From NCBI RefSeq assembly GCF_008124615.1, contig NZ_VNIB01000006.1, forward strand, positions 124,001 to 188,000: DNA of 64,000 nucleotides, read 5' to 3'. Below the pieces are notes generated by a model that was not told the DNA's origin, made no database searches, and saw nothing but the letters and a program-made list of their open reading frames with translations. This document shows positions 7,126-55,348 of the stretch, piece by piece. The position numbers were made by a program, and so were the translations under genes. Source of the DNA: Geothermobacter ehrlichii (lineage in GTDB: Bacteria > Desulfobacterota > Desulfuromonadia > Desulfuromonadales > Geothermobacteraceae). How positions within the stretch are numbered: position 1 is the first letter of the stretch; every line of letters starts with the position of its first letter.

Positions 7126-7210
7126 AACGGGTATTGAACATGCCGCCGACGCCGACAGCTGTCAAGAAGGATACGGCCTGAAACCGGATGCCACCGCCCC
7201 CCCCCCGGCT

Positions 7211-7238
7211 TTGCCTTCGCGGTAAAGCCGGGTATAAT
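7211..7238 (+). promoter_or_regulatory. Sigma-70-type promoter with overlapping hairpin
   Basis: TTGCCT, 16-bp spacer, perfect TATAAT. An inverted repeat (CCGGCTTT at 7206-7213 and AAAGCCGG at 7224-7231) overlaps the -35 box and spacer and could be an operator. A run of ten C (7197-7206) abuts the -35 region. Confidence 0.65.
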
Positions 7239-7313
7239 GGCTCGATTCAAAACCTCGAGTCGCCTGACCGGTAACGAAGTATTGCCGGATGTCGGGAAAG
7301 GGAGGACGGAATC

Positions 7314-8087
7314 ATGCGAAAACTCTTTGCAGCCTGGATTCTCGGTCTCGTTATGACCGCACTGCCAACCGCCGGTCGCGCCGTCGAAGCACAACTTGTC
7401 TCCGGCGCCGGCCCCTCGACCAAGATCGTGCAGCTCTTCTTCGAGCATTTCGGCAAAGATCCGGCCTGCAGGAACTACAGCTTCACCGTCCCCGCCCCGT
7501 CCATCAAGCACCGGGGCGGCATCCAGGCGTCCGACACCTACCTCTTCGGCCGCACCGGCAGACCCCTGAACACCAAGGAACGCGGCATTGGCAAAGAAGA
7601 GATCTTTCTGGCCAAGGTGCCGATCACCTTCGCCGTCGGACTGGAGACCGGCGTTCAACAGCTGACCCTGAAACAGATCGAACAGATCTTCACCCGTCGG
7701 ATTACCAACTGGAAAGAGGTCGGCGGCAACGACGGCCAGATCCTGCTGGTCGGCCGGGAAGCGACGGAGGCCCTCTTTTCGACCCTGAAGCGGGACTTCC
7801 CCTTTTTCAGGGAGGTGACCTTCGACCGGATTTTCCGCCGCGACCCGCAGGTGGTCAAATTTCTCATGTCCCCGGCCGGCAGGCTGGCCATCGGCTTCGG
7901 CGCCCAACCCAATTTCCGCAAGCACAACCAGCTCCGGGTGGAAGGGTTCTCCTCCGGCGTCAGCCTCGGCCTGGCCTACGACCTGAAAAACGCCGACCAT
8001 CCCGTCGTCAGGGCCGCCCGCGCCTACGCCGCCAGCGACGAATGGAAGCGGCTGGTCCGCCAGGCCGGGCTGCTGCCTGCCGGCTGA
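7314..8087 (+). CDS. Phosphate-binding-protein-like periplasmic protein (PstS superfamily)
   Basis: A 257-residue exported protein (signal peptide to about residue 23) resembling PstS-type solute-binding domains: a binding-fold segment with YLFGRTGRPL and a QIEQIFTRRITNWKEVGG segment that is typical of this superfamily. No pst permease genes are adjacent, so it may be a stand-alone sensor or carrier. The ATG has a GGGAGGA ribosome-binding site, and the gene ends at a strong bidirectional terminator. Confidence 0.75.
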   Translation: MRKLFAAWILGLVMTALPTAGRAVEAQLVSGAGPSTKIVQLFFEHFGKDPACRNYSFTVPAPSIKHRGGIQASDTYLFGRTGRPLNTKERGIGKEEIFLAKVPITFAVGLETGVQQLTLKQIEQIFTRRITNWKEVGGNDGQILLVGREATEALFSTLKRDFPFFREVTFDRIFRRDPQVVKFLMSPAGRLAIGFGAQPNFRKHNQLRVEGFSSGVSLGLAYDLKNADHPVVRAARAYAASDEWKRLVRQAGLLPAG

Positions 8088-17755: not shown

Positions 17756-17913
17756 TTTGCTTAACAATTAGACTGTTCCGGAAGCGAGGGATTTTACGTC
17801 AAATCAAGGAAGCCAAGACCTGACAAACGAGGCGTGGAACGCCACGTCGAGCGAAGGCAGGTTGCAGGCTGACGCAGAGTTGGCGTAAAAGCCCCGCGCC
17901 CTGGCAGTACATA

Positions 17914-18019
17914 CTCATCGAGAGTGGCGGAGGGAACAGGCCCTGCGAAGCCACGGCAACCGCCGATACCGATCGGAAAGGTGCCAATTCCTGCTCCGGA
18001 TGATCCGGAGAAAGATGAG
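17914..18019 (+). promoter_or_regulatory. SAM-I (S-box) riboswitch
   Basis: The P1 stem pairs CTCATC (17914-17919) with GATGAG (18014-18019). The core matches the S-box consensus: GAGAGTGGCGGAGGGA, GGCCCTGCGAAGCC, CGGCAACC, AAGGTGCCAATTCC and GAAAGATGAG. In this family, SAM binding favours formation of the downstream terminator, here at 18059-18091. It controls the trans-sulfuration gene at 18128. Confidence 0.95.
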
Positions 18020-18058
18020 AACGGCGCTTCAGAAAAGATTTCGCCGCGGCGACTGTCG

Positions 18059-31213: not shown

Positions 31214-31340
31214 GTCTTTATCGCGAGTGGTGGAGGGACAGGCCCTGTGAAGCCACAGCAACCGGTCCGCCGGCAAGCCGGCGGGTGTCAGGTGCTAATT
31301 CCTGCCCGTCATGAATTCACATGCCGGGAAAGATGAGGAC
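31214..31340 (+). promoter_or_regulatory. SAM-I (S-box) riboswitch
   Basis: P1 pairs GTCTTTATC (31214-31222) with GATGAGGAC (31332-31340), including G-U pairs. The core holds GCGAGTGGTGGAGGGACAGG in part, GGCCCTGTGAAGCC, CAGCAACC, AGGTGCTAATTCC and GGAAAGATGAGG. An extended GC-rich P3 arm (CCGCCGGC and GCCGGCGG) makes it longer than the copy at 17914. A terminator follows at 31376. Confidence 0.95.
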
Positions 31341-46667: not shown

Positions 46668-48620
46668 ATGAATCTGCAGAACCAGGCCAACTTCATCTGG
46701 TCGGTCGCCGACCTGCTGCGCGGCGACTTCAAGCGCTCCGACTTCGGGCGCATCATCCTGCCGTTCACCCTGCTGCGACGCCTGGAATGTGTGCTCGAGC
46801 CGACCCGCGAAGCGGTGCTGAAACGCTACGACGAACTGAAGGAGAGCGGTCTCGACCTCGATGCCATCCTGCCGAAAGTCGCAGGGCAAAGATTCTATAA
46901 TGTCTCCCGCTACACCCTGGCCAATGTCGGCGAAACCGAAACCCGGGCCAATCTCGAAGACTACATCGCCAGGTTCAGCAGCAACGCCCGCGCCTGTTTC
47001 GACTATTTCAATTTCACCACCTGGCTCGACCGACTGGCCGAAGCCAACCTGCTCTACCTGGTGGTGCAGCGCTTCGCCGGTATCGACCTGCACCCCGACG
47101 TGGTGTCGAACCACGAAATGGGGCTGATTTTCGAGGAACTGATCCGGCGTTTCGCCGAAAGCGCAAACGATACCGCCGGAGAATACTTCACCCCGCGCGA
47201 TGTCGTGCGCCTGGCGACCACCCTGGTCTTCGCCCCCGACCACGAGGTTCTGACCGGTGAAGGCGTCATCCGCACCATCTACGACCCCTGCTGCGGCACC
47301 GGCGGCTTTCTCGCCTCCGGCATCGAGCAGGTACACGAATGGAACGACAAGGCGCGCATCGTCCCCTACGGCCAGGAACTCAACCCCGAGTCCTACGCCA
47401 TCGCCATGGCCGACATGCTGGTCAAGGGCTACGACCCGAAAAACATCAAGTTCGGCAACACCCTCAGCGACGACCAGCTGCCGCTGGAGCGCTTCAACTA
47501 CTGCCTCGCCAATCCTCCCTTCGGCGTCGACTGGAAGAAGGTACAGAAAGCGGTCACCGACGAGCACCAGATCAAGGGCTTTGATGGCCGCTTCGGCCCT
47601 GGTCTGCCGCGGGTTTCCGACGGCTCGCTGCTCTTTCTGATGCATCTGATCTCCAAGCGCCGCTTTGAGGACGGCGGCACCCGCATCGGCATCGTCCTCA
47701 ACGGCTCGCCGCTGTTCACCGGCGGCGCCGGCTCCGGCGAATCGGAAATCCGCCGCTGGATACTCGAAAACGACTGGCTGGAGGCGATCGTCGCCCTGCC
47801 GACCGACCTGTTCTACAACACCGGCATCGCCACCTACATCTGGATTCTCTCCAACCACAAGGACCCCCGCCGCAAGGGCAAGGTGCAGCTCATCAACGCC
47901 ACCGAACTCTGGACGCCGATGCGCAAGAGTCTCGGCAGCAAGCGGCGCTACATCAGCGACGAGCAGATCGCAATCATCGCCCGGCAGTTTGCAGATTTCG
48001 AAGAGAGCGAGACCAGCAAGATTTTCAACACCACCGACTTCGGCTACCGGCGCATCACCGTCGAGCGCCCCCTGCAGCTTGCCTTCCATCCGCGCGACGA
48101 GCTGCGGCTCGAGGCCCTACAGGCTGACAAGGTCTGGGGGAAGCTGGACGAAGAGCGCCAGCAGGCACTGCTGAATGCGCTGGAACAACTCGAAGAGAAA
48201 TACCTCTCACGCGACCAGTTCTTCAAGGCGGTAACGGCCGCCCTGGGCGGCAAACTTGCCGCGCCGGAGAAGAAGCTGCTACAGAAACACCTCGGCGAAC
48301 ACGACCCCGAAGCCGAATATTGCAAGGCCAAGGGAGCCTTCGAGCCGAATCCCGATCTGCGCGACTACGAGAATGTGCCGCTGTCGGAATCGGTGGCAGA
48401 CTACTTTGCCCGTGAAGTCGTCCCCCACGTGCCGGACGCCTGGATCGACGAAAGCAAGCGCGACCCGAAGGACGGCGCGGTCGGCATCGTCGGTTACGAG
48501 ATCAACTTCAACCGCTATTTCTACAAGTACGTGCCGCCGCGTCCGCTGGAGGAGATCGACGCCGAGCTGCGGCAGGTGGAGCGGGAGATTCAGGATCTGC
48601 TGCGGGAGGTAACGGAGTGA
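46668..48620 (+). CDS. hsdM: Type I restriction-modification methyltransferase subunit
   Basis: HsdM methylates adenine in the site chosen by HsdS. The 650-residue protein has an N-terminal helical domain, SAM motif I (DPCCGTGGF) near residue 206 and the adenine catalytic motif NPPF near 282. It is longer than the commonest HsdM (about 500-530), with an extra C-terminal region ending LLREVTE. The ATG at 46668 begins conserved sequence. It is separated from hsdS by about 2.2 kb of other genes, not by the usual short gap. Confidence 0.95.
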
Positions 48621-48692
48621 GCTTTTCCAACTGTGCAACCACTTGTTTTGATGGCGCAACCACCCAAATTGGTGTACGACCTGTAAAAAAGT

Positions 48693-48721
48693 TTGCAAAT
48701 CCACAGCTTTTTGTGTATAAG
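48693..48721 (+). promoter_or_regulatory. Promoter of the abiF-like RNA
   Basis: TTGCAA, 17-bp spacer, TATAAG. Predicted start near 48728, right at the beginning of the structured RNA. Confidence 0.6.
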
Positions 48722-48727
48722 TTATCC

Positions 48728-48785
48728 AACACACCTGCCATGCCTCTGGCCGCTTGCGGCTATGCACACTTTGGCGGGTTTTTTA
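48728..48785 (+). ncRNA. abiF-like structured RNA, copy 1
   Basis: Outer stem CCTGCC (48734-48739) with GGCGGG (48773-48778), inner hairpin CCGC-TT-GCGG, and conserved single strands ATGCCTCTG and TGCACA, ending in TTTTTT. The second copy at 49786 keeps the same design with compensatory changes. An RNA motif found upstream of Abi_2 genes (the abiF RNA) is known from comparative genomics; the location here, 20 nt before such a gene, and the form fit it. The match was made from memory of the motif, not by a covariance search. Confidence 0.62.
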
Positions 48786-48804
48786 TTGCCCGGAGTTTGC
48801 GGGC

Positions 48805-49716
48805 ATGAATCAGTTCAACAAAGCCCCTCTTACCATTGACGAGCAGCTTGAGCTCTGGCAGTCACGCGGGCTGAATGTCCCTGACCCGGAACGCGCTCGA
48901 CGCTATCTCTCCGTCATCAGCTACTACCGCCTGAGTGCCTACAGCCGACCGTTTCAAAGTGCTGACCATCGCTTCAAGCCGGGTGTGACCTTTGACGATG
49001 TCCTTGGTCTCTACGTTTTCGACCGCAAACTGAGACTCTTCATCCTCGACGCCATCGAACGTATCGAGGTTGCCTTTCGTGCCCGCATGACCCAGGTGCT
49101 TGGCGAGAACTATGGAGCCCATGCCTACACTCTTCCAGCAATATTCGGCAACAAATATGGCCATGACTGGCTGCTGGACAATGTGCGCGAAAAGTGTAAT
49201 GGCCGCAACGCCGAGCCCTTTCTGCAGCATTATCGACAGAAATACCGTGACCCGGAACTGCCGCCCGTGTGGATGGTCATGGAGGTTCTGACCTTCAAGG
49301 AGGTCTCCTATCTCTTTGCCCATTTGCGCCATAAAAAGGACAAACAAGCGGTCGCAGACTTCTGGGGATTACCTGTTCCGATTGCCGAATCCTGGTTTCG
49401 GGCGCTGTCCGACCTGAGAAACGTCTGCGCCCATCACGCCCGCACCTGGAACCGGGAGTTCGGAAGTCGACCGCGGATACCCAGAAAACCACCGGCGAAC
49501 TGGCCGAACCTTTCCCCCTTGCCGAGAACAGGCATCGACCCGACGAAACGCCTCTACCATCTGCTCGTGGTCATTGAGTACATGCTGCGCCGAATCAATC
49601 CCGGCTCCAGCTGGCATCAGAGATTGTTTGAACTGATGGAGCAACACCCACATGTCAGTCGTGAACACATGGGCATGCCGGAGAATTGGTACAAAGAGAA
49701 ATTCTGGAATCTGTAA
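48805..49716 (+). CDS. Abi_2/AbiF-family HEPN abortive-infection protein
   Basis: A 303-residue protein of the Abi_2 family (AbiD/AbiF), implicated in phage abortive infection. The N-terminal signature RRYLSVISYYRLSAYSRPF in part is typical. A HEPN-type RNase motif R-x4-H is present as RNVCAHH, residues 205-210, which suggests RNA cleavage. The start ATG at 48805 begins conserved sequence just after the structured RNA, which could act as its RNA antitoxin. It sits inside a type I restriction operon, downstream of hsdM. Confidence 0.88.
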   Translation: MNQFNKAPLTIDEQLELWQSRGLNVPDPERARRYLSVISYYRLSAYSRPFQSADHRFKPGVTFDDVLGLYVFDRKLRLFILDAIERIEVAFRARMTQVLGENYGAHAYTLPAIFGNKYGHDWLLDNVREKCNGRNAEPFLQHYRQKYRDPELPPVWMVMEVLTFKEVSYLFAHLRHKKDKQAVADFWGLPVPIAESWFRALSDLRNVCAHHARTWNREFGSRPRIPRKPPANWPNLSPLPRTGIDPTKRLYHLLVVIEYMLRRINPGSSWHQRLFELMEQHPHVSREHMGMPENWYKEKFWNL

Positions 49717-49785
49717 CAGCAGAATCTCAATCAGATGGGAATTTGACAATTGCCATGCAGAAAAAAACCAACTACACTGCCGGCA

Positions 49786-49849
49786 ACAACACCCGCCACG
49801 CCTCTGCAGGTTTCGGCCTGACATGCGCACCCCGGCGGGTTACTTTTTA
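49786..49849 (+). ncRNA. abiF-like structured RNA, copy 2 (no Abi gene after it)
   Basis: Outer stem CCCGCC (49792-49797) with GGCGGG (49834-49839); inner hairpin CAGG-TTTCGG-CCTG; shared strands ACGCCTCTG and TGCGCA. Relative to copy 1, the inner stem differs at both sides while pairing is kept. It is followed by a GGGGCTGG...CCGGCCCC hairpin (49851-49878) and a T-rich tract, not by an Abi gene. It is either an orphan antitoxin RNA or the remains of a second unit. Confidence 0.58.
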
Positions 49850-49912
49850 TGGGGCTGGTGCTGAAAGTTGCCGGCCCCTGTTTTGTTTGCCCATCAAGGT
49901 ACTTCCCGGATT

Positions 49913-50011
49913 CAAGAAGGCCAACCTCTCGATGAGCGGCAGGCGCTCTATCAGCGAATTGCCGAAGAGATTTGGGATGTGAACCGGTTGCGTGAAGAGG
50001 TGACAGAGTGA
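49913..50011 (+). pseudogene. Fragment resembling an hsdM 3' end
   Basis: A short open frame ending LREEVTE and a TGA stop, followed by GAGAATG; the hsdM gene ends LLREVTE with TGAGC. The coding-like stretch QEGQPLDERQALYQR and onward has no start codon or ribosome-binding site. It may be the tail of another gene, left by recombination, that preceded hsdS in an ancestor. Confidence 0.35.
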
Positions 50012-50158: not shown

Positions 50159-50770
50159 ATGGGAACGAAGAAGACGAGAACAACCAGTCTGGGCGATGCC
50201 CTGTTTACCAAGACCCAGCGCCAGGTTCTGGGGTTGCTGTTTGGCCACCCGGATCGGAGCTATTACGCCAAGGAAATTGTCAGACTGGCAGGGATGGGGG
50301 TTGGCAGTGTACACCGCGAACTTGAGAAACTCGCGGCCGCGGGCCTGCTGACCGTCAGGCAGGTCGGCAATCAGAAACATTACCAGGCCAACGAGAGATC
50401 ACCGATCTTCGAAGAACTGAAGGGAATCGTGCGGAAGACGTTCGGTCTGGCGGACGTCCTGCGAGCGGCCCTGGCCCGTTGCGGGGACAGGATTGTTCTG
50501 GCCTTCATCTACGGGTCGGTTGCCAAAAGCACGGATCACGCCGGCAGCGATATCGACCTGCTGATCGTATCCGACGATTTGGCTTATTCCGAAGTGATGA
50601 CCATTTTGGCTGATGCTGAAACCAGGTTGGGGCGAACGGTCAATCCGACCATCTACAGCCTCGAAGAGTTTCGGAGCAAAATGGCGGCTGACGACAGCTT
50701 TGTTGCCCGTGTTGTCCGGCAACCCAAAATCTTTTTGATCGGGTCGGAAGATGACGTTACCGCAGCTTGA
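50159..50770 (+). CDS. Winged-helix protein with MNT-type nucleotidyltransferase domain
   Basis: A 203-residue protein: an ArsR-like winged helix (about residues 12-75) and a minimal nucleotidyltransferase domain with GSVAKSTDHAGSDIDLL near 119-135, where GS and DxD bind the nucleotide and metals. MNT proteins usually pair with HEPN toxins and inactivate them by nucleotide transfer. Here the gene after it is only a short stub, so the partner is probably lost. The ATG at 50159 is preceded by the palindrome at 50141. Function in the absence of HEPN may be limited to DNA binding. Confidence 0.82.
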   Translation: MGTKKTRTTSLGDALFTKTQRQVLGLLFGHPDRSYYAKEIVRLAGMGVGSVHRELEKLAAAGLLTVRQVGNQKHYQANERSPIFEELKGIVRKTFGLADVLRAALARCGDRIVLAFIYGSVAKSTDHAGSDIDLLIVSDDLAYSEVMTILADAETRLGRTVNPTIYSLEEFRSKMAADDSFVARVVRQPKIFLIGSEDDVTAA

Positions 50771-50825
50771 CAAGCTTGTTGCCATCGGGCAATTGAAGGA
50801 TGGGGACAAAAAAAGAGGTGGCGGT
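50751..50825 (+). pseudogene. Truncated N-terminus of a HEPN-type partner gene
   Basis: An ATG overlapping the end of the nucleotidyltransferase gene opens a frame reading MTLPQLDKLVAIGQLKDG, which resembles the beginning of HEPN partners of MNT proteins as I remember them. The frame then continues without a stop into hsdS. Identity rests on a short segment and on context. Confidence 0.45.
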
Positions 50826-52148
50826 GTGAGGCGTTACAAGCCGTATCCGAAATATAAAGATTCAGGGGTGGAGTGGCTGGGTGAAGTGCCTGAACATTGG
50901 GATATTAAACCACTTCTTGCTGTTTCTGTTGAGCGCAAAGTCAAGAATACAGGCAACATCGAAAATAATGTTCTCTCGCTCAGTTACGGGAAAATTATTA
51001 GGCGATCTGTTGACACGGATTTCGGCTTATTGCCAGCCTCGTTTGAAACCTACCAGATAATCGAGCCTGGAGATATAATCCTTCGTCTGACTGACCTACA
51101 GAACGACCAGCGAAGCTTGAGGACCGGGTGTGCAAAAGAGCGGGGCATAATCACATCTGCTTATCTTTGTTTGCGCCCTAGCAATTCGGTCGACTCTCGC
51201 TATCTGCATTATTTGCTACACGCCTACGATATCCAGAAGATTTTTTACAGCATGGGCGGTGGTGTTCGTCAGTCTATGGGGTTCGGCGACCTGCGGCGGT
51301 TGCCTGTGACAATTCCCGTCTCTGACGAACAACAAGCCATCGCCGCCTTTCTCGACCGCGAAACCGCGCGCATTGACGCGCTGATTGAGAAAAAGCAGCG
51401 CCTGATTGAGCTGCTGAAAGAAAAGCGCCAGGCCATCATCACCCAGGCCGTGACCAAGGGGCTTGACCCGAATGTGCCGATGAAGGATTCCGGGGTCGAG
51501 TGGTTGGGGGAGGTGCCGGCGCATTGGGAGGTTTTGCCACTTAAACGCTTAGTATCAAAAATAGTGTCAGGGACAAGCGTGAATGCTATAGATAAACCAG
51601 CCGAGAATGGAGAGTTGGCTGTTTTAAAAACCAGTTCTGTTTACTCTGGTAATTTTGAAGCAAACGAAAACAAAACGGTCGTTGAAGAAGATCTACACCG
51701 AGTAAGTTGCCCCGTCGTAAAAAATACCCTCATCGTCAGTAGAATGAACACCCCAAGCCTTGTTGGAGCGGCGGGTTATGTGAGCGACGACTACCCCAAC
51801 ATTTATCTTCCCGACCGTTTATGGATGGTTTTTTTTGATATATCAGTTGTTCCTCAATTTGTCCATTACTGGACAATGACATCAATTTACCGAACGCAAG
51901 TGGAGATGGTTTGTGCCGGCACAAGCTCTAGTATGCAAAACATCTCCCAAGGTGATTTTTTGGGATTCTATTTAGCCATACCTCCAAAAGCTGAACAGGG
52001 AAAAATCGTCGAGAGACTGACAAAACAATGCACACAAATCTGTAAATTGATTACAACTCTTGAATTTAGTGTCAATCTTCTCAAAGAACGCCGCGCCGCG
52101 CTCATCACGGCTGCTGTCACCGGCCAGATCGACGTCAGGGGGGAATAA
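50826..52148 (+). CDS. hsdS: Type I restriction specificity subunit
   Basis: HsdS sets the DNA target of the restriction complex. The 440-residue protein has two target-recognition domains separated by helical repeats; KDSGVEWLGEVPEHW near the start and KDSGVEWLGEVPAHW near residue 220 are the repeated units. GTG at 50826 follows AGAGGTGG. A longer reading from 50751 is open in frame but begins inside the preceding gene, and is regarded as a HEPN stub. The recognition domains are visibly richer in A+T than the flanking genes, usual for exchanged hsdS segments. Confidence 0.9.
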   Translation: MRRYKPYPKYKDSGVEWLGEVPEHWDIKPLLAVSVERKVKNTGNIENNVLSLSYGKIIRRSVDTDFGLLPASFETYQIIEPGDIILRLTDLQNDQRSLRTGCAKERGIITSAYLCLRPSNSVDSRYLHYLLHAYDIQKIFYSMGGGVRQSMGFGDLRRLPVTIPVSDEQQAIAAFLDRETARIDALIEKKQRLIELLKEKRQAIITQAVTKGLDPNVPMKDSGVEWLGEVPAHWEVLPLKRLVSKIVSGTSVNAIDKPAENGELAVLKTSSVYSGNFEANENKTVVEEDLHRVSCPVVKNTLIVSRMNTPSLVGAAGYVSDDYPNIYLPDRLWMVFFDISVVPQFVHYWTMTSIYRTQVEMVCAGTSSSMQNISQGDFLGFYLAIPPKAEQGKIVERLTKQCTQICKLITTLEFSVNLLKERRAALITAAVTGQIDVRGE

Positions 52149-52150
52149 CT

Positions 52151-55100
52151 ATGAGTCTGTCCGCCAGCCCGCACCACGAGGTTCACTTCGAAGACCACAT
52201 CGTCGAGCAACTCGCCGCGCAGGGCTGGCTTGTCGGTGATGCCGGCAATTACGACCGTGTGCGGGCGCTCTATCCCGAAGATGTCATCGGCTATTTGAAA
52301 GACTCGCAGCCCGAAGCCTGGGCCAAACTGGAAAAGCTCAACGGCACCACCACCGAAAAAATCGTCCTCGACCGGCTGGTGAAGGCGCTGGAGAAGGACG
52401 GCACCCTCGAAGTCATCCGCCGGGGCGTCAACCTGGTCGGCGCCGGGCGGGTCATCCTCTGCCAGTCGCTGCCGGAGGACGATCGCAACGAGCAGGTCAT
52501 CCAGCGCTACCAGGCCAACCGGCTGCGGGTGGTGCGCCAGCTCAAATACGCCCCCGACCGCGAGTGGTCGATTGATCTGGTCTTTTTCATCAACGGCATC
52601 CCGGTGGCCACGGCGGAACTGAAATCGGACTTCACCCAGTCGGTCGAGGACGCCATCCGCCAGTACCGCACCGACCGCAAACCGAAGGACCGGCAGAGCG
52701 GCCTGAGCTTCCCGCTTCTCACCTTCAAGCGCGGGGCGCTGGTGCACTTTGCCGTTTCGACCTCGGAAATCTACATGACCACCCGCCTGGCCGGGGCGAA
52801 AACGATCTTTCTCCCCTTCAACCGGGGCAACGACGGCGCGGCAGGCAACCCGCCGGCGCAGGACGGCACTTATGCGGTCAGCTACCTGTGGGAGCAGATT
52901 CTCCAGCCCGACAACTGGCTGCGCATCTTTCACCGCTTCATGCTGCTGGAGAGAAAGGAGAAGCAGCACGCCGACGGCCGGCCGTACATCGCCGAAACGA
53001 TGGTCTTCCCCCGCTTCCACCAGTGGGAGGCGGTCACCGCGCTGATCGACACCGTGCGCGAAGAAGGTCCGGGACAGCGTTACCTGGTGCAGCACAGCGC
53101 CGGTTCCGGCAAGACCAACTCCATCTCCTGGACCTGCCACGAGCTGATTCGCCTGCGCCGGCCCGACGGCGGCAAGTATTTCGATTCGGTCATCGTCATC
53201 ACCGACCGCACGGTGCTCGACGCCCAGTTGCAAGAGGCCATCCGGCAGATTGACCACCAGATGGGGGTGGTGCGGGCCATCGACCGCGAGGCGAGCCCGC
53301 TGCCGAAAAGCCGGCAGCTTGCCGAGGCACTGCAGCAGCGCACGCCGATCATCGTGGTGACCCTGCAGACCTTTCCCTACGCGATGGAGGCGATTCTCTC
53401 GGAAACCTCGCTCAAGGACCGGAACTTCGCCCTTGTGATCGACGAGGCGCACAGCTCGCAGACCGGCTCATCGGCCAGCAAACTGCGGGCGACGCTGGCG
53501 CTCGACAAGGACGAAGACCTGGCCAGCATGACCTCGGACGAAATCCTGCTGCGTCTGCAGGAGGTGAAAAAGTTTCCGCCCAATGTCTCCTACTTTGCCT
53601 TCACCGCGACGCCGAAACATTCGACCCTGACCCTGTTCGGCCGCCCGGCCGATCCGGGCAAGCCCCTGTCGAAGGAGAACCCGCCGCGTCCCTTCCACAT
53701 CTACAGCATGCAGCAGGCAATCGAGGAAGGCTTCATTCTCGATGTGCTGCGCAATTACGTCTCCTACCGGGTGGCCTTCCGCCTGGGGCAGGCTTTCAAG
53801 GAAGACAAGCGGGTCGACGCCAAACAGGCGCGACGCAACCTGGCCAGGTGGCTGTCGCTGCATCCGACCAACGTGGCCCAGAAGGTGGAGCTGATCGTCG
53901 AGCATTTCCGCTCGACGGTGGCGCATCTGCTCAACGGTCAGGCCAAGGCGATGGTGGTGACCGGCTCGCGCGCTTCGGCGGTGAAGTACAAGCTGGCCTT
54001 CGACCGCTACGTCAAAGAGAAGGGCTACCAGGGCATCAGGGCGCTGGTCGCCTTTTCGGGCAAGGTCCCCGGCGGTCAGGTCGACGCGACGCTGGCGGGC
54101 GAGGAATTCGACGAGAACAACATGAATCCTGGTGTCAGGGGGCAGGATCTGCGCCGCGCCTTCGACACCGACCAGTATCAGGTGATGCTGGTCGCCAACA
54201 AGTTCCAGACCGGCTTCGACCAGCCGAAACTGGTGGCGATGTACGTCGACAAGAAGATCTCCGGGGTCGACGCGGTGCAGACCCTGAGCCGCCTCAACCG
54301 GATTTACCCGGGCAAGGACCGCACCTACGTGATCGACTTCGCCAACGATCCGCAGGAGATTCTCGCCGCCTTCCGGCTGTTCTACAAGGAGGCCCGCATC
54401 GAGGATGTCCAGGACCCGCACATCGTCTACGACATCAAGGAAACCCTCGACAAGGCGCTGATCTACACCCCGGAAGAGGTGGAGCGCTTCGGCGCGGAAA
54501 TCACCCGGCCGGAGCCGCGCCAGGCCCAGTTGATGGCGATCACCGACCCGGCGACCCAGCGGTTCAACGGCCGGCTGAAGGAGCTGAACGAACAAATCGA
54601 GCAGCACGAGCGCGAATTCCAGCGCTGCCACGCGGCGGGTGACGAGGCCGCCGCCGCGGAAGCCGATCTCAAGCGCGGCGAGGCAACCAAAAAGCGAGAT
54701 GCCCTGCTGAAGTTCAAGGAAAACCTGGGCAAGTTCGTGCGCATGTACGAATATATCGCCCAGCTGGTCGAGTTCGGCGATCCGGAACTGGAGGCCTTTG
54801 CCGGTTACGCCCGGCTGCTGCGCAACCGCCTGAAGAGCATCAATCCCGAGGAGATCGACCTGAAAGGGCTGCAGCTGACCCACTATGCCGTCCTGAACGA
54901 CGGCAAGCTGGACGGGATCGCGGCGGAAAAGCAGGAGGACTGGGGCGTCCTGCGCCCGGTCACCGGGCTGGGCTCGGGTGAGCCGCGCGACCGGGAGCGG
55001 ACCTTTCTTTCGGAGCTGATCGAAAAACTGAACGAACTGTTCGGTGAGGGAATCACCGACAAGGACAAGGTGATGTTCGCGGTGCACATCAGTGAAAAGC

Positions 55101-55348
55101 TGCGCGAGAACGAGACCGTCATGGCCCAGGTGCAGAACAATTCCCGCGAGCAGGCCCTGAAGGCCGACCTGCCCGAAGCCGCCACAGATGCCATCGTCGA
55201 AGCGCTGGCGTCCCACAAGTCAATTGCCGAGCGGTTACTCTCCGATGCTGGAGCACAAGACCTGTTCTATGGGTTGTTGTATGACATTCTAAAAAAGACA
55301 GATGCGGCCAAACTGCTACAGGAAAACCTGAAAACGGAAACCGCCTAA
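52151..55348 (+). CDS. hsdR: Type I restriction endonuclease/translocase subunit
   Basis: HsdR pulls DNA with ATP and cuts it. The 1065-residue protein has the nuclease block (IDLVFF...ELK, residues about 140-155), Walker A AGSGKT near 317, a DEAH box (VIDEAHSS) near 429 and further SF2 helicase motifs. A coiled-coil region rich in Glu and Lys lies near 810-860. It begins 2 nt after hsdS, so both are co-transcribed. The gene is intact. Confidence 0.96.
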   Translation: MSLSASPHHEVHFEDHIVEQLAAQGWLVGDAGNYDRVRALYPEDVIGYLKDSQPEAWAKLEKLNGTTTEKIVLDRLVKALEKDGTLEVIRRGVNLVGAGRVILCQSLPEDDRNEQVIQRYQANRLRVVRQLKYAPDREWSIDLVFFINGIPVATAELKSDFTQSVEDAIRQYRTDRKPKDRQSGLSFPLLTFKRGALVHFAVSTSEIYMTTRLAGAKTIFLPFNRGNDGAAGNPPAQDGTYAVSYLWEQILQPDNWLRIFHRFMLLERKEKQHADGRPYIAETMVFPRFHQWEAVTALIDTVREEGPGQRYLVQHSAGSGKTNSISWTCHELIRLRRPDGGKYFDSVIVITDRTVLDAQLQEAIRQIDHQMGVVRAIDREASPLPKSRQLAEALQQRTPIIVVTLQTFPYAMEAILSETSLKDRNFALVIDEAHSSQTGSSASKLRATLALDKDEDLASMTSDEILLRLQEVKKFPPNVSYFAFTATPKHSTLTLFGRPADPGKPLSKENPPRPFHIYSMQQAIEEGFILDVLRNYVSYRVAFRLGQAFKEDKRVDAKQARRNLARWLSLHPTNVAQKVELIVEHFRSTVAHLLNGQAKAMVVTGSRASAVKYKLAFDRYVKEKGYQGIRALVAFSGKVPGGQVDATLAGEEFDENNMNPGVRGQDLRRAFDTDQYQVMLVANKFQTGFDQPKLVAMYVDKKISGVDAVQTLSRLNRIYPGKDRTYVIDFANDPQEILAAFRLFYKEARIEDVQDPHIVYDIKETLDKALIYTPEEVERFGAEITRPEPRQAQLMAITDPATQRFNGRLKELNEQIEQHEREFQRCHAAGDEAAAAEADLKRGEATKKRDALLKFKENLGKFVRMYEYIAQLVEFGDPELEAFAGYARLLRNRLKSINPEEIDLKGLQLTHYAVLNDGKLDGIAAEKQEDWGVLRPVTGLGSGEPRDRERTFLSELIEKLNELFGEGITDKDKVMFAVHISEKLRENETVMAQVQNNSREQALKADLPEAATDAIVEALASHKSIAERLLSDAGAQDLFYGLLYDILKKTDAAKLLQENLKTETA

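What the first reader, a model, noticed from the sequence alone, without database searches (positions are those of the whole stretch)
48728..49849. Two covarying abiF-like RNAs around a HEPN Abi gene inside an hsd operon
Seen: two short RNAs (48728-48785 and 49786-49849) share outer CCxGCC/GGCGGG stems, GCCTCTG and TGC(A/G)CA strands, and have inner hairpins that differ on both arms (CCGC/GCGG versus CAGG/CCTG). The first precedes an Abi_2 gene with an R-x4-H HEPN motif and has its own promoter and T6 end; the second follows it and has no Abi gene. Known: an abiF RNA motif accompanies Abi_2 genes. Inferred: an RNA-antitoxin/HEPN system with a spare antitoxin RNA, placed where restriction failure by phage could release the toxin.
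Basis: partly seen in the sequence, partly recalled or inferred. Interest (0 to 1): 0.72.

Follow-up and report, generated by a model that had tools for sequence, protein, structure and literature searches.

The report
Toxin gene with a spare antidote RNA
A bacterial restriction operon carries an RNA-cutting toxin with its own antidote RNA, plus a second antidote RNA whose toxin gene has decayed; such toxin-less antidote RNAs are common in relatives and also occur in virulent phages, which may use them to disarm this defence.

Summary
Both RNAs are real abiF-family RNAs (Rfam RF03085: 27.3 and 35.0 bits, below the cut-off of 37 because their apical loops are enlarged into hairpins). The gene between them is a normal Abi_2/AbiF HEPN toxin (R205-x4-H210), homologous to the solved AbiF-ncRNA complex 8VZ6, set between hsdM and hsdS/hsdR. 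RNA1 is its cognate antitoxin. RNA2 is not a duplicate of RNA1: it belongs to another abiF subtype, and its flank still holds a decayed start of a second abiF gene. It is therefore an orphan antitoxin whose toxin was lost. A related genome carries both RNAs at the same locus with neither toxin, and RNA2's core is conserved (46/48) far better than its flanks. A third, toxin-less copy resembling RNA1 sits in a conjugative-type element of the same genome. About 20 of 53 abiF RNAs in the class lack a toxin. Viral contigs hold dozens of solo abiF RNAs, and complete phages (T7-like Aeromonas and Rhizobium phages, T4-like cyanophages) carry one but no Abi_2 gene. AbiF in R-M operons was already known. 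The pattern of solo antitoxin RNAs, especially in phages, is the interesting part; that they act as decoys is inferred and testable.

The parts
46668..48620 (+). hsdM, type I methyltransferase subunit (650 aa)
   Evidence: Pfam N6_Mtase 3.7e-56 and HsdM_N 1.4e-26; PADLOC MTase_I 2.8e-277
48693..48721 (+). promoter-like site of RNA1, TTGCAA-17-TATAAG (by eye)
   Evidence: sequence; not reported by the scan; a TATA hexamer stands at about the same distance in L003 and G063
48728..48785 (+). RNA1, abiF-family RNA with expanded apical hairpin (GCCG-CUUG-CGGC) and T6 end; core 48734-48779
   Evidence: RF03085 27.3 bits; R1 59.4 bits; fold -23.1 kcal/mol, z -2.97
48805..49716 (+). abiF/abiD HEPN toxin gene (303 aa, RNVCAH motif, R205 and H210)
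   Evidence: PF07751 1.8e-52; PADLOC AbiD 2.2e-71; profile with 14 relatives matches 8VZ6 at 9.2e-97
49750..49778 (+). promoter-like site of RNA2, TTGCCA-17-TACACT
   Evidence: both hexamers conserved in G094
49786..49849 (+). RNA2, abiF-family RNA of another subtype, orphan; core 49792-49840
   Evidence: RF03085 35.0 bits; R1 58.7 bits; nearest RNAs are those of G109 (L042) and G094
49851..49901 (+). decayed start of a second abiF gene (start codon now CTG); 49851-49878 also forms a terminator-like hairpin
   Evidence: 79% identity over 111 nt to G109, running through that genome's RNA into its abi start codon; aligned with the truncated abi start of G094; hairpin
50159..50770 (+). nucleotidyltransferase/winged-helix protein, PADLOC PDC-M05A, between the abiF region and hsdS
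   Evidence: PADLOC 2.9e-87; Polbeta 4.4e-8
50751..52148 (+). hsdS, specificity subunit
   Evidence: Methylase_S 9.1e-14; PADLOC Specificity_I 3.7e-123
52151..55348 (+). hsdR, restriction subunit
   Evidence: HSDR_N 1.9e-16, SWI2_SNF2 2.5e-22; hsdR subfamily 1.6e-46

Best explanation
48728-49716 is an AbiF toxin-antitoxin module (type III-like). RNA1 is transcribed from its own promoter and mostly stops at its own terminator stem; the small RNA binds the HEPN ribonuclease AbiF and keeps it inactive, while occasional read-through makes toxin mRNA. The module sits between hsdM and hsdS, a recurrent position. RNA2 is the promoter and antitoxin RNA of a second AbiF module of another subfamily, whose toxin gene has been deleted down to a decayed first ~17 codons; it survives as an orphan. 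The sequence of loss (toxin first, RNA kept) is what toxin-antitoxin logic predicts. RNA2's conserved core suggests that it is still maintained, most likely because it can neutralise incoming AbiF toxins. Shown here: family membership, subtype mismatch, toxin remnant, conserved RNA core. Inferred: transcription, RNA binding, toxicity and continuing function.
For: abiF model hits; class-wide model and census; the nearest RNA starts 57-91 nt upstream of most abi genes in relatives; RNA subtype follows the Abi tree (5 changes against a shuffled mean of 13.1 and minimum of 10; Mantel r 0.60, 0 of 2000); RNA2 nearest to the RNAs of G109 and G094, RNA1 nearest to those of G063 and G029; remnant of abi start after RNA2; G094 holds both RNAs at the same ileS-lspA-tRNA locus without an intact toxin; RNA2 core 46/48 identical against 28/40 upstream and 33/49 downstream (Fisher p 1.5e-4); homologous AbiF-ncRNA structure 8VZ6; published neutralisation by direct RNA binding and toxicity in C. 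difficile and E. coli (PMC12373285).
Against: No expression or binding data. Both RNAs score below Rfam's curated cut-off. The toxin remnant is short (about 17 codons at roughly two-thirds identity), so a chance continuation of similarity cannot be fully excluded. Conservation of RNA2 rests on two genomes, and toxin loss may be more recent than assumed.
Confidence: 0.75

Rival explanations
1. RNA2 is a genuine second antitoxin for the resident AbiF (a backup copy).
For: The core strands (GCCUCU...GC-N-CA and outer stem) are shared by nearly all abiF RNAs; some relatives have two RNAs upstream of one toxin (G014, G128); AbiF of C. difficile uses two motifs in one transcript (PMC12373285).
Against: RNA subtype tracks toxin subfamily and RNA2 is of the G109/G094 subtype; it lies downstream of the toxin with its own promoter and a toxin remnant of its own; none of the other loci examined has an RNA downstream of the toxin.
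Confidence: 0.12
2. Orphan abiF RNAs, including RNA2, are non-functional relics in the course of decay.
For: Seven solo RNAs in the class are followed by truncated toxin starts of 11-64 aa; the RNA1-like copy of G094 has lost a stem base (GCC to ACC).
Against: RNA2 core conserved against diverged flanks; the mobile-element copy keeps the structure with a shifted G-U pair; phage copies covary on four pairs with 100% of cells paired.
Confidence: 0.3
3. The toxin is a second line of defence tethered to the type I enzyme (PrrC-like): anti-restriction by phage frees AbiF.
For: abiF lies between hsdM and hsdS in 11 of 30 tree rows, with at least 6 changes of state on the tree; PrrC/hsd precedent and 'Abi2/AbiF/AbiD embedded in R-M operons' in PMC3710099.
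Against: Most relatives are not in hsd operons and carry the same RNA-toxin pair, so the RNA suffices as the inhibitor; no physical link to Hsd proteins shown.
Confidence: 0.15
4. The two elements are only transcription terminators of the hsdM and abi transcripts.
For: Both outer stems are GC-rich and followed by T runs; a further terminator-like hairpin follows RNA2.
Against: A terminator needs no GCCUCU loop strand, no GC-N-CA strand and no covarying inner pair; these are conserved in bacteria and phages, and promoter-like sites lie just upstream of both.
Confidence: 0.04

Closest known systems
AbiF/AbiFr and AbiF-RCd22 systems (Rfam RF03085, Pfam Abi_2, structure 8VZ6)
   Same: Abi_2 HEPN protein with R-x4-H, abiF RNA just upstream with its own promoter and terminator (PMC12373285)
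   Different: Apical loop enlarged into a hairpin in both RNAs; an extra RNA of another subtype downstream with no toxin; placed in an hsd operon
HEPN genes embedded in R-M operons, such as PrrC-EcoPrrI (PMC3710099)
   Same: HEPN ribonuclease gene inside a type I hsd operon; Abi2/AbiF/AbiD are listed there as embedded in R-M operons
   Different: PrrC is held by the Hsd complex; here an RNA antitoxin is present and no Hsd dependence is shown
pseudo-ToxI RNA of phage PhiTE (PMC3475682)
   Same: Stand-alone antitoxin-like RNA in a phage that mimics a type III antitoxin
   Different: Repeats of ToxI against ToxN, shown experimentally; the solo abiF RNAs are mostly single units and untested
Orphan or anti-addiction antitoxins of type II systems
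   Same: Antitoxin kept without its toxin, possibly protecting against related incoming systems
   Different: Protein antitoxins; here an RNA (comparison from general knowledge; the reviews listed were not read)
abiF sRNA annotated in cyanophage S-CREM1 (PMC9964418)
   Same: Phage-borne abiF RNA without an Abi_2 gene
   Different: Reported as a single annotation; in the passages read it is not read as an anti-AbiF decoy nor as part of a general pattern

Membership tests
Rfam abiF RNA (RF03085) | score at or above the curated cut-off of 37 bits | tested here: not met
   35.0 and 27.3 bits; the shortfall goes with the bases inserted in the apical loop
Rfam abiF RNA (RF03085) | conserved strands GCCUCU and GC-N-CA, outer 6-pair stem and inner 3-pair stem with covariation | tested here: met
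   full-length alignment to the model; covariation with relatives
AbiF/AbiD toxin (Abi_2) | Abi_2 domain with HEPN R-x4-H | tested here: met
   1.8e-52; R205 and H210 invariant; 8VZ6 match
Type III toxin-antitoxin | RNA antitoxin gene directly upstream of the toxin gene, ending in a terminator | tested here: met
   RNA1 ends about 20 nt before the toxin start with a T6 run; same layout in relatives
Type III toxin-antitoxin | RNA binds and neutralises a toxic protein | not testable with these tools
   shown for C. difficile AbiF by others (PMC12373285)
PrrC-like guard of a type I enzyme | gene within the hsd operon | tested here: met
   hsdM upstream, hsdS and hsdR downstream
PrrC-like guard of a type I enzyme | toxin held inactive by the Hsd complex and freed by anti-restriction | not testable with these tools
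   no data
Solo antitoxin RNA (decoy, pseudo-ToxI-like) | antitoxin RNA without its toxin gene | tested here: met
   no Abi_2 after RNA2 or after the C12 copy; none in the whole records of nine phages that carry the RNA
Solo antitoxin RNA (decoy, pseudo-ToxI-like) | expressed and neutralising a toxin encoded elsewhere | not testable with these tools
   only conservation and promoter-like sites

The most novel reading that the evidence does not exclude
Solo abiF RNAs form a widespread class of RNA counter-defence: stand-alone antitoxins in virulent phages, conjugative elements and chromosomes that bind and disarm AbiF toxins. RNA2 and the C12 copy are bacterial examples; T7-like Aeromonas and Rhizobium phages and T4-like cyanophages carry phage examples.
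Probability: 0.45. Interest if true: 0.82.

Novelty: new variant of a known kind. Interest (0 to 1): 0.62.

Why it matters
AbiF is thought to be the ancestor of Cas13, and how phages escape it is, as far as the papers read here show, little known. If solo abiF RNAs are decoys, phages already carry a small RNA that switches AbiF off, and the RNA subtype would indicate which toxins it targets. The window gives a compact test case: one toxin, its own RNA, a mismatched orphan RNA and a mobile-element copy in one genome.

Tried and rejected
A ToxI hit at 48666-48688 (18.1 bits, cut-off 50) and an sX5 hit were taken as chance. The ORF end at 49900-50010 (LFAHQGTSRIQEGQPLDERQ...REEVTE) looked like a gene tail; tblastn against the loci held at that point found nothing convincing. 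Two solo hits in G032 (C4 and C77) look like one RNA at overlapping contig ends, and two others lie near a contig end; they are flagged, not counted as clean. A control pattern with altered bases gave 0 hits in viral contigs against 105 stretches for the real one. A BLAST search of the RNA1 region in phages gave mostly short partial matches over the 3' half and was not used. A PHROGs search failed on coordinates and was replaced by a Pfam search on a partly different set of genes.

Full report
What is there. The window (contig C6 of a 3.24-Mb draft genome) holds a type I restriction operon: hsdM 46668-48620, a nucleotidyltransferase of PADLOC class PDC-M05A 50159-50770, hsdS 50751-52148 and hsdR 52151-55348. 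Between hsdM and the nucleotidyltransferase lie RNA1, an abi gene, and RNA2. The Abi protein (P0001, 303 aa) matches Abi_2 at 1.8e-52 and PADLOC AbiD at 2.2e-71. In an alignment of 15 relatives R205 and H210 are invariant; they correspond to the R-x4-H motif that is needed for toxicity in C. difficile AbiF (PMC12373285). A profile of that alignment finds the solved Abi family protein 8VZ6 at 9.2e-97, which PMC12737573 identifies as the PbAbiF-ncRNA complex.

The RNAs. Both RNAs align over the full abiF model of Rfam, at 35.0 and 27.3 bits, below the curated 37. The loss goes with the apical loop: most relatives have a short CAACGA-type loop, while these two have an extra hairpin. Expanded hairpins occur in other relatives too, for example in G063 and G029, which have a UUCG loop in place of CUUG and, in G029, a C-G to U-A exchange in the same hairpin. 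Across 23 relatives the outer and inner stems pair in 99.5% of cells, with a covariation score reached by 0 of 500 shuffles.

RNA1 is cognate, RNA2 is not. In the relatives with a recognisable abiF RNA, the nearest RNA starts 57-91 nt before the abi start. On a tree of 30 Abi proteins the type of the inner pair changes 5 times, against a mean of 13.1 and a minimum of 10 in 300 label shuffles, and RNA core distance correlates with protein distance (Mantel r 0.60, 0 of 2000 permutations). RNA1 has the type of its own clade (G063, G029, L006, L007, L044). RNA2 is nearest to the RNA before the G109 abi gene, whose protein is only about 40% identical to P0001.

RNA2 is an orphan. The RNA2 region is 79% identical over 111 nt to G109, and the match runs on into the start of that genome's abi gene: GGTGATGAAATTCGC there, GGTGCTGAAAGTTGC here, with the start codon lost. 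In G094, of the same family, the same ileS-lspA-tRNA locus carries an RNA1-like and an RNA2-like element about 130-140 nt apart, no intact toxin and no hsd genes seen in the stretch read; RNA2 there is followed by NYTKPPLSFAEQVALLF, a truncated Abi start. RNA2's core is 46 of 48 identical between the two genomes, while the 40 nt upstream are 28/40 and the toxin remnant 33/49 (Fisher p 1.5e-4). Both promoter hexamers of RNA2 (TTGCCA and TACACT) are kept. This suggests that the orphan RNA is maintained while its toxin is dead, with the caveat that it rests on two genomes and on the assumption that the toxin was lost before they parted.

A third copy. The same genome has one more abiF RNA, on contig C12, 89% identical to RNA1 over 83 nt, with no Abi_2 gene. 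Its neighbours include a TraC conjugation protein, an actin-like protein and a large serine recombinase, so it probably lies in a conjugative element.

How common are solo RNAs? In 277 genomes of the class, 53 RNA hits at E 2e-6 or better were compared with Abi_2 hits: 32 have Abi_2 within 400 nt downstream, 21 do not. Two of the 21 look like one RNA seen at two contig ends, and two lie close to a contig end. Seven of the solos are followed by truncated Abi starts of 11-64 aa. Toxin loss with the RNA kept is thus recurrent.

Phages. A strict pattern for the RNA found 105 stretches in IMG/VR viral contigs; a control pattern with altered bases found none. Of the 80 loci held, one has an Abi gene next to the RNA; 13 of the 80 have little room downstream. 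All score with the model, 100% of cells pair in 56 distinct sequences, and the inner pair takes all four Watson-Crick types (this alignment is fitted to the model, but the search pattern left that pair free). Neighbours checked are phage genes: gp32, terminase, portal. Annotated phages carry the RNA in fixed places: four Aeromonas Studiervirinae between the head-tail connector and the capsid assembly/scaffold gene, Rhizobium phages Pasto and RHEph21 before the major capsid gene, Salicola phage CGphi29, and cyanophages S-CREM1 and S-SZBM1 in tRNA clusters. The six annotated records tested reach Rfam's own cut-off (PZL-Ah8, PT2, CGphi29, T7-Ah, RHEph21, S-SZBM1), and S-CREM1 was already annotated. 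Two related Aeromonas phages differ by a compensatory C-G to A-U exchange in the outer stem. None of nine phage records and 18 viral contigs tested has an Abi_2 gene anywhere. The Aeromonas phage RNAs have the U-A inner pair, the same type as the abiF RNA of Aeromonas fluvialis. Viral contigs can carry complete AbiF modules as well: at least 95 encode an Abi_2 relative, and 32 of the 80 held have the RNA upstream at E 0.0015 or better.

How it probably works. RNA1 and AbiF form a type III-like toxin-antitoxin pair: shown by homology and anatomy, not by experiment. RNA2 is the surviving antitoxin of a lost second module. The simplest reason to keep it, and for phages and mobile elements to carry such RNAs, is neutralisation of AbiF toxins met in other genomes, as PhiTE does with pseudo-ToxI against ToxN (PMC3475682). 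This last step is inference.

The hsd position. abiF lies between hsdM and hsdS, or directly after hsdM, in 11 of 30 tree rows, including Aeromonas, with at least six changes of state on the tree. That Abi2/AbiF/AbiD genes are embedded in R-M operons, and that PrrC is a precedent, was stated in 2013 (PMC3710099). A release of AbiF by anti-restriction is possible but untested.

Novelty. The toxin, its RNA and the R-M setting are known. New here, as far as the held papers show, are the subtype-mismatched orphan RNA with a toxin remnant, its conservation, and the breadth of solo abiF RNAs in phages. The primary paper on the abiF motif was not held and the primary paper on the AbiF-Cas13 link was seen only through citations, so priority could not be fully checked.

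Noticed in passing
G000:C12:78826-78882 (L003, L040): Third abiF RNA of the same genome, close to RNA1, toxin-less, near TraC, an actin-like gene and a large serine recombinase.
   Followed up: yes
L261, L262, L264, L269 (Aeromonas phages): Solo abiF RNA in the same slot between the head-tail connector and the capsid assembly/scaffold genes of T7-like phages, with a compensatory stem change between phages.
   Followed up: partly
L160, L166, L186, L217: Solo abiF RNA directly after the gp32 gene (Pfam-confirmed in L160, similar protein by eye in the others) of T4-like viral contigs.
   Followed up: partly
L078 (G128:C81): Another hsd-embedded abi gene with two upstream RNAs of different subtype; the nearer one (U-A type) does not match its clade.
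   Followed up: no
window 50159-50770: PDC-M05A nucleotidyltransferase in the hsd operon; relatives of it occur in 54 of 277 genomes of the class.
   Followed up: no
window 17912-18021 and 31215-31339: Two SAM riboswitches (99.6 and 78.2 bits).
   Followed up: no
L146 about 7170-7690, minus strand (G094): A ParD/ParE-like gene pair (by eye) stands near the two solo abiF RNAs, after the tRNA at the locus where the window has hsdM.
   Followed up: no
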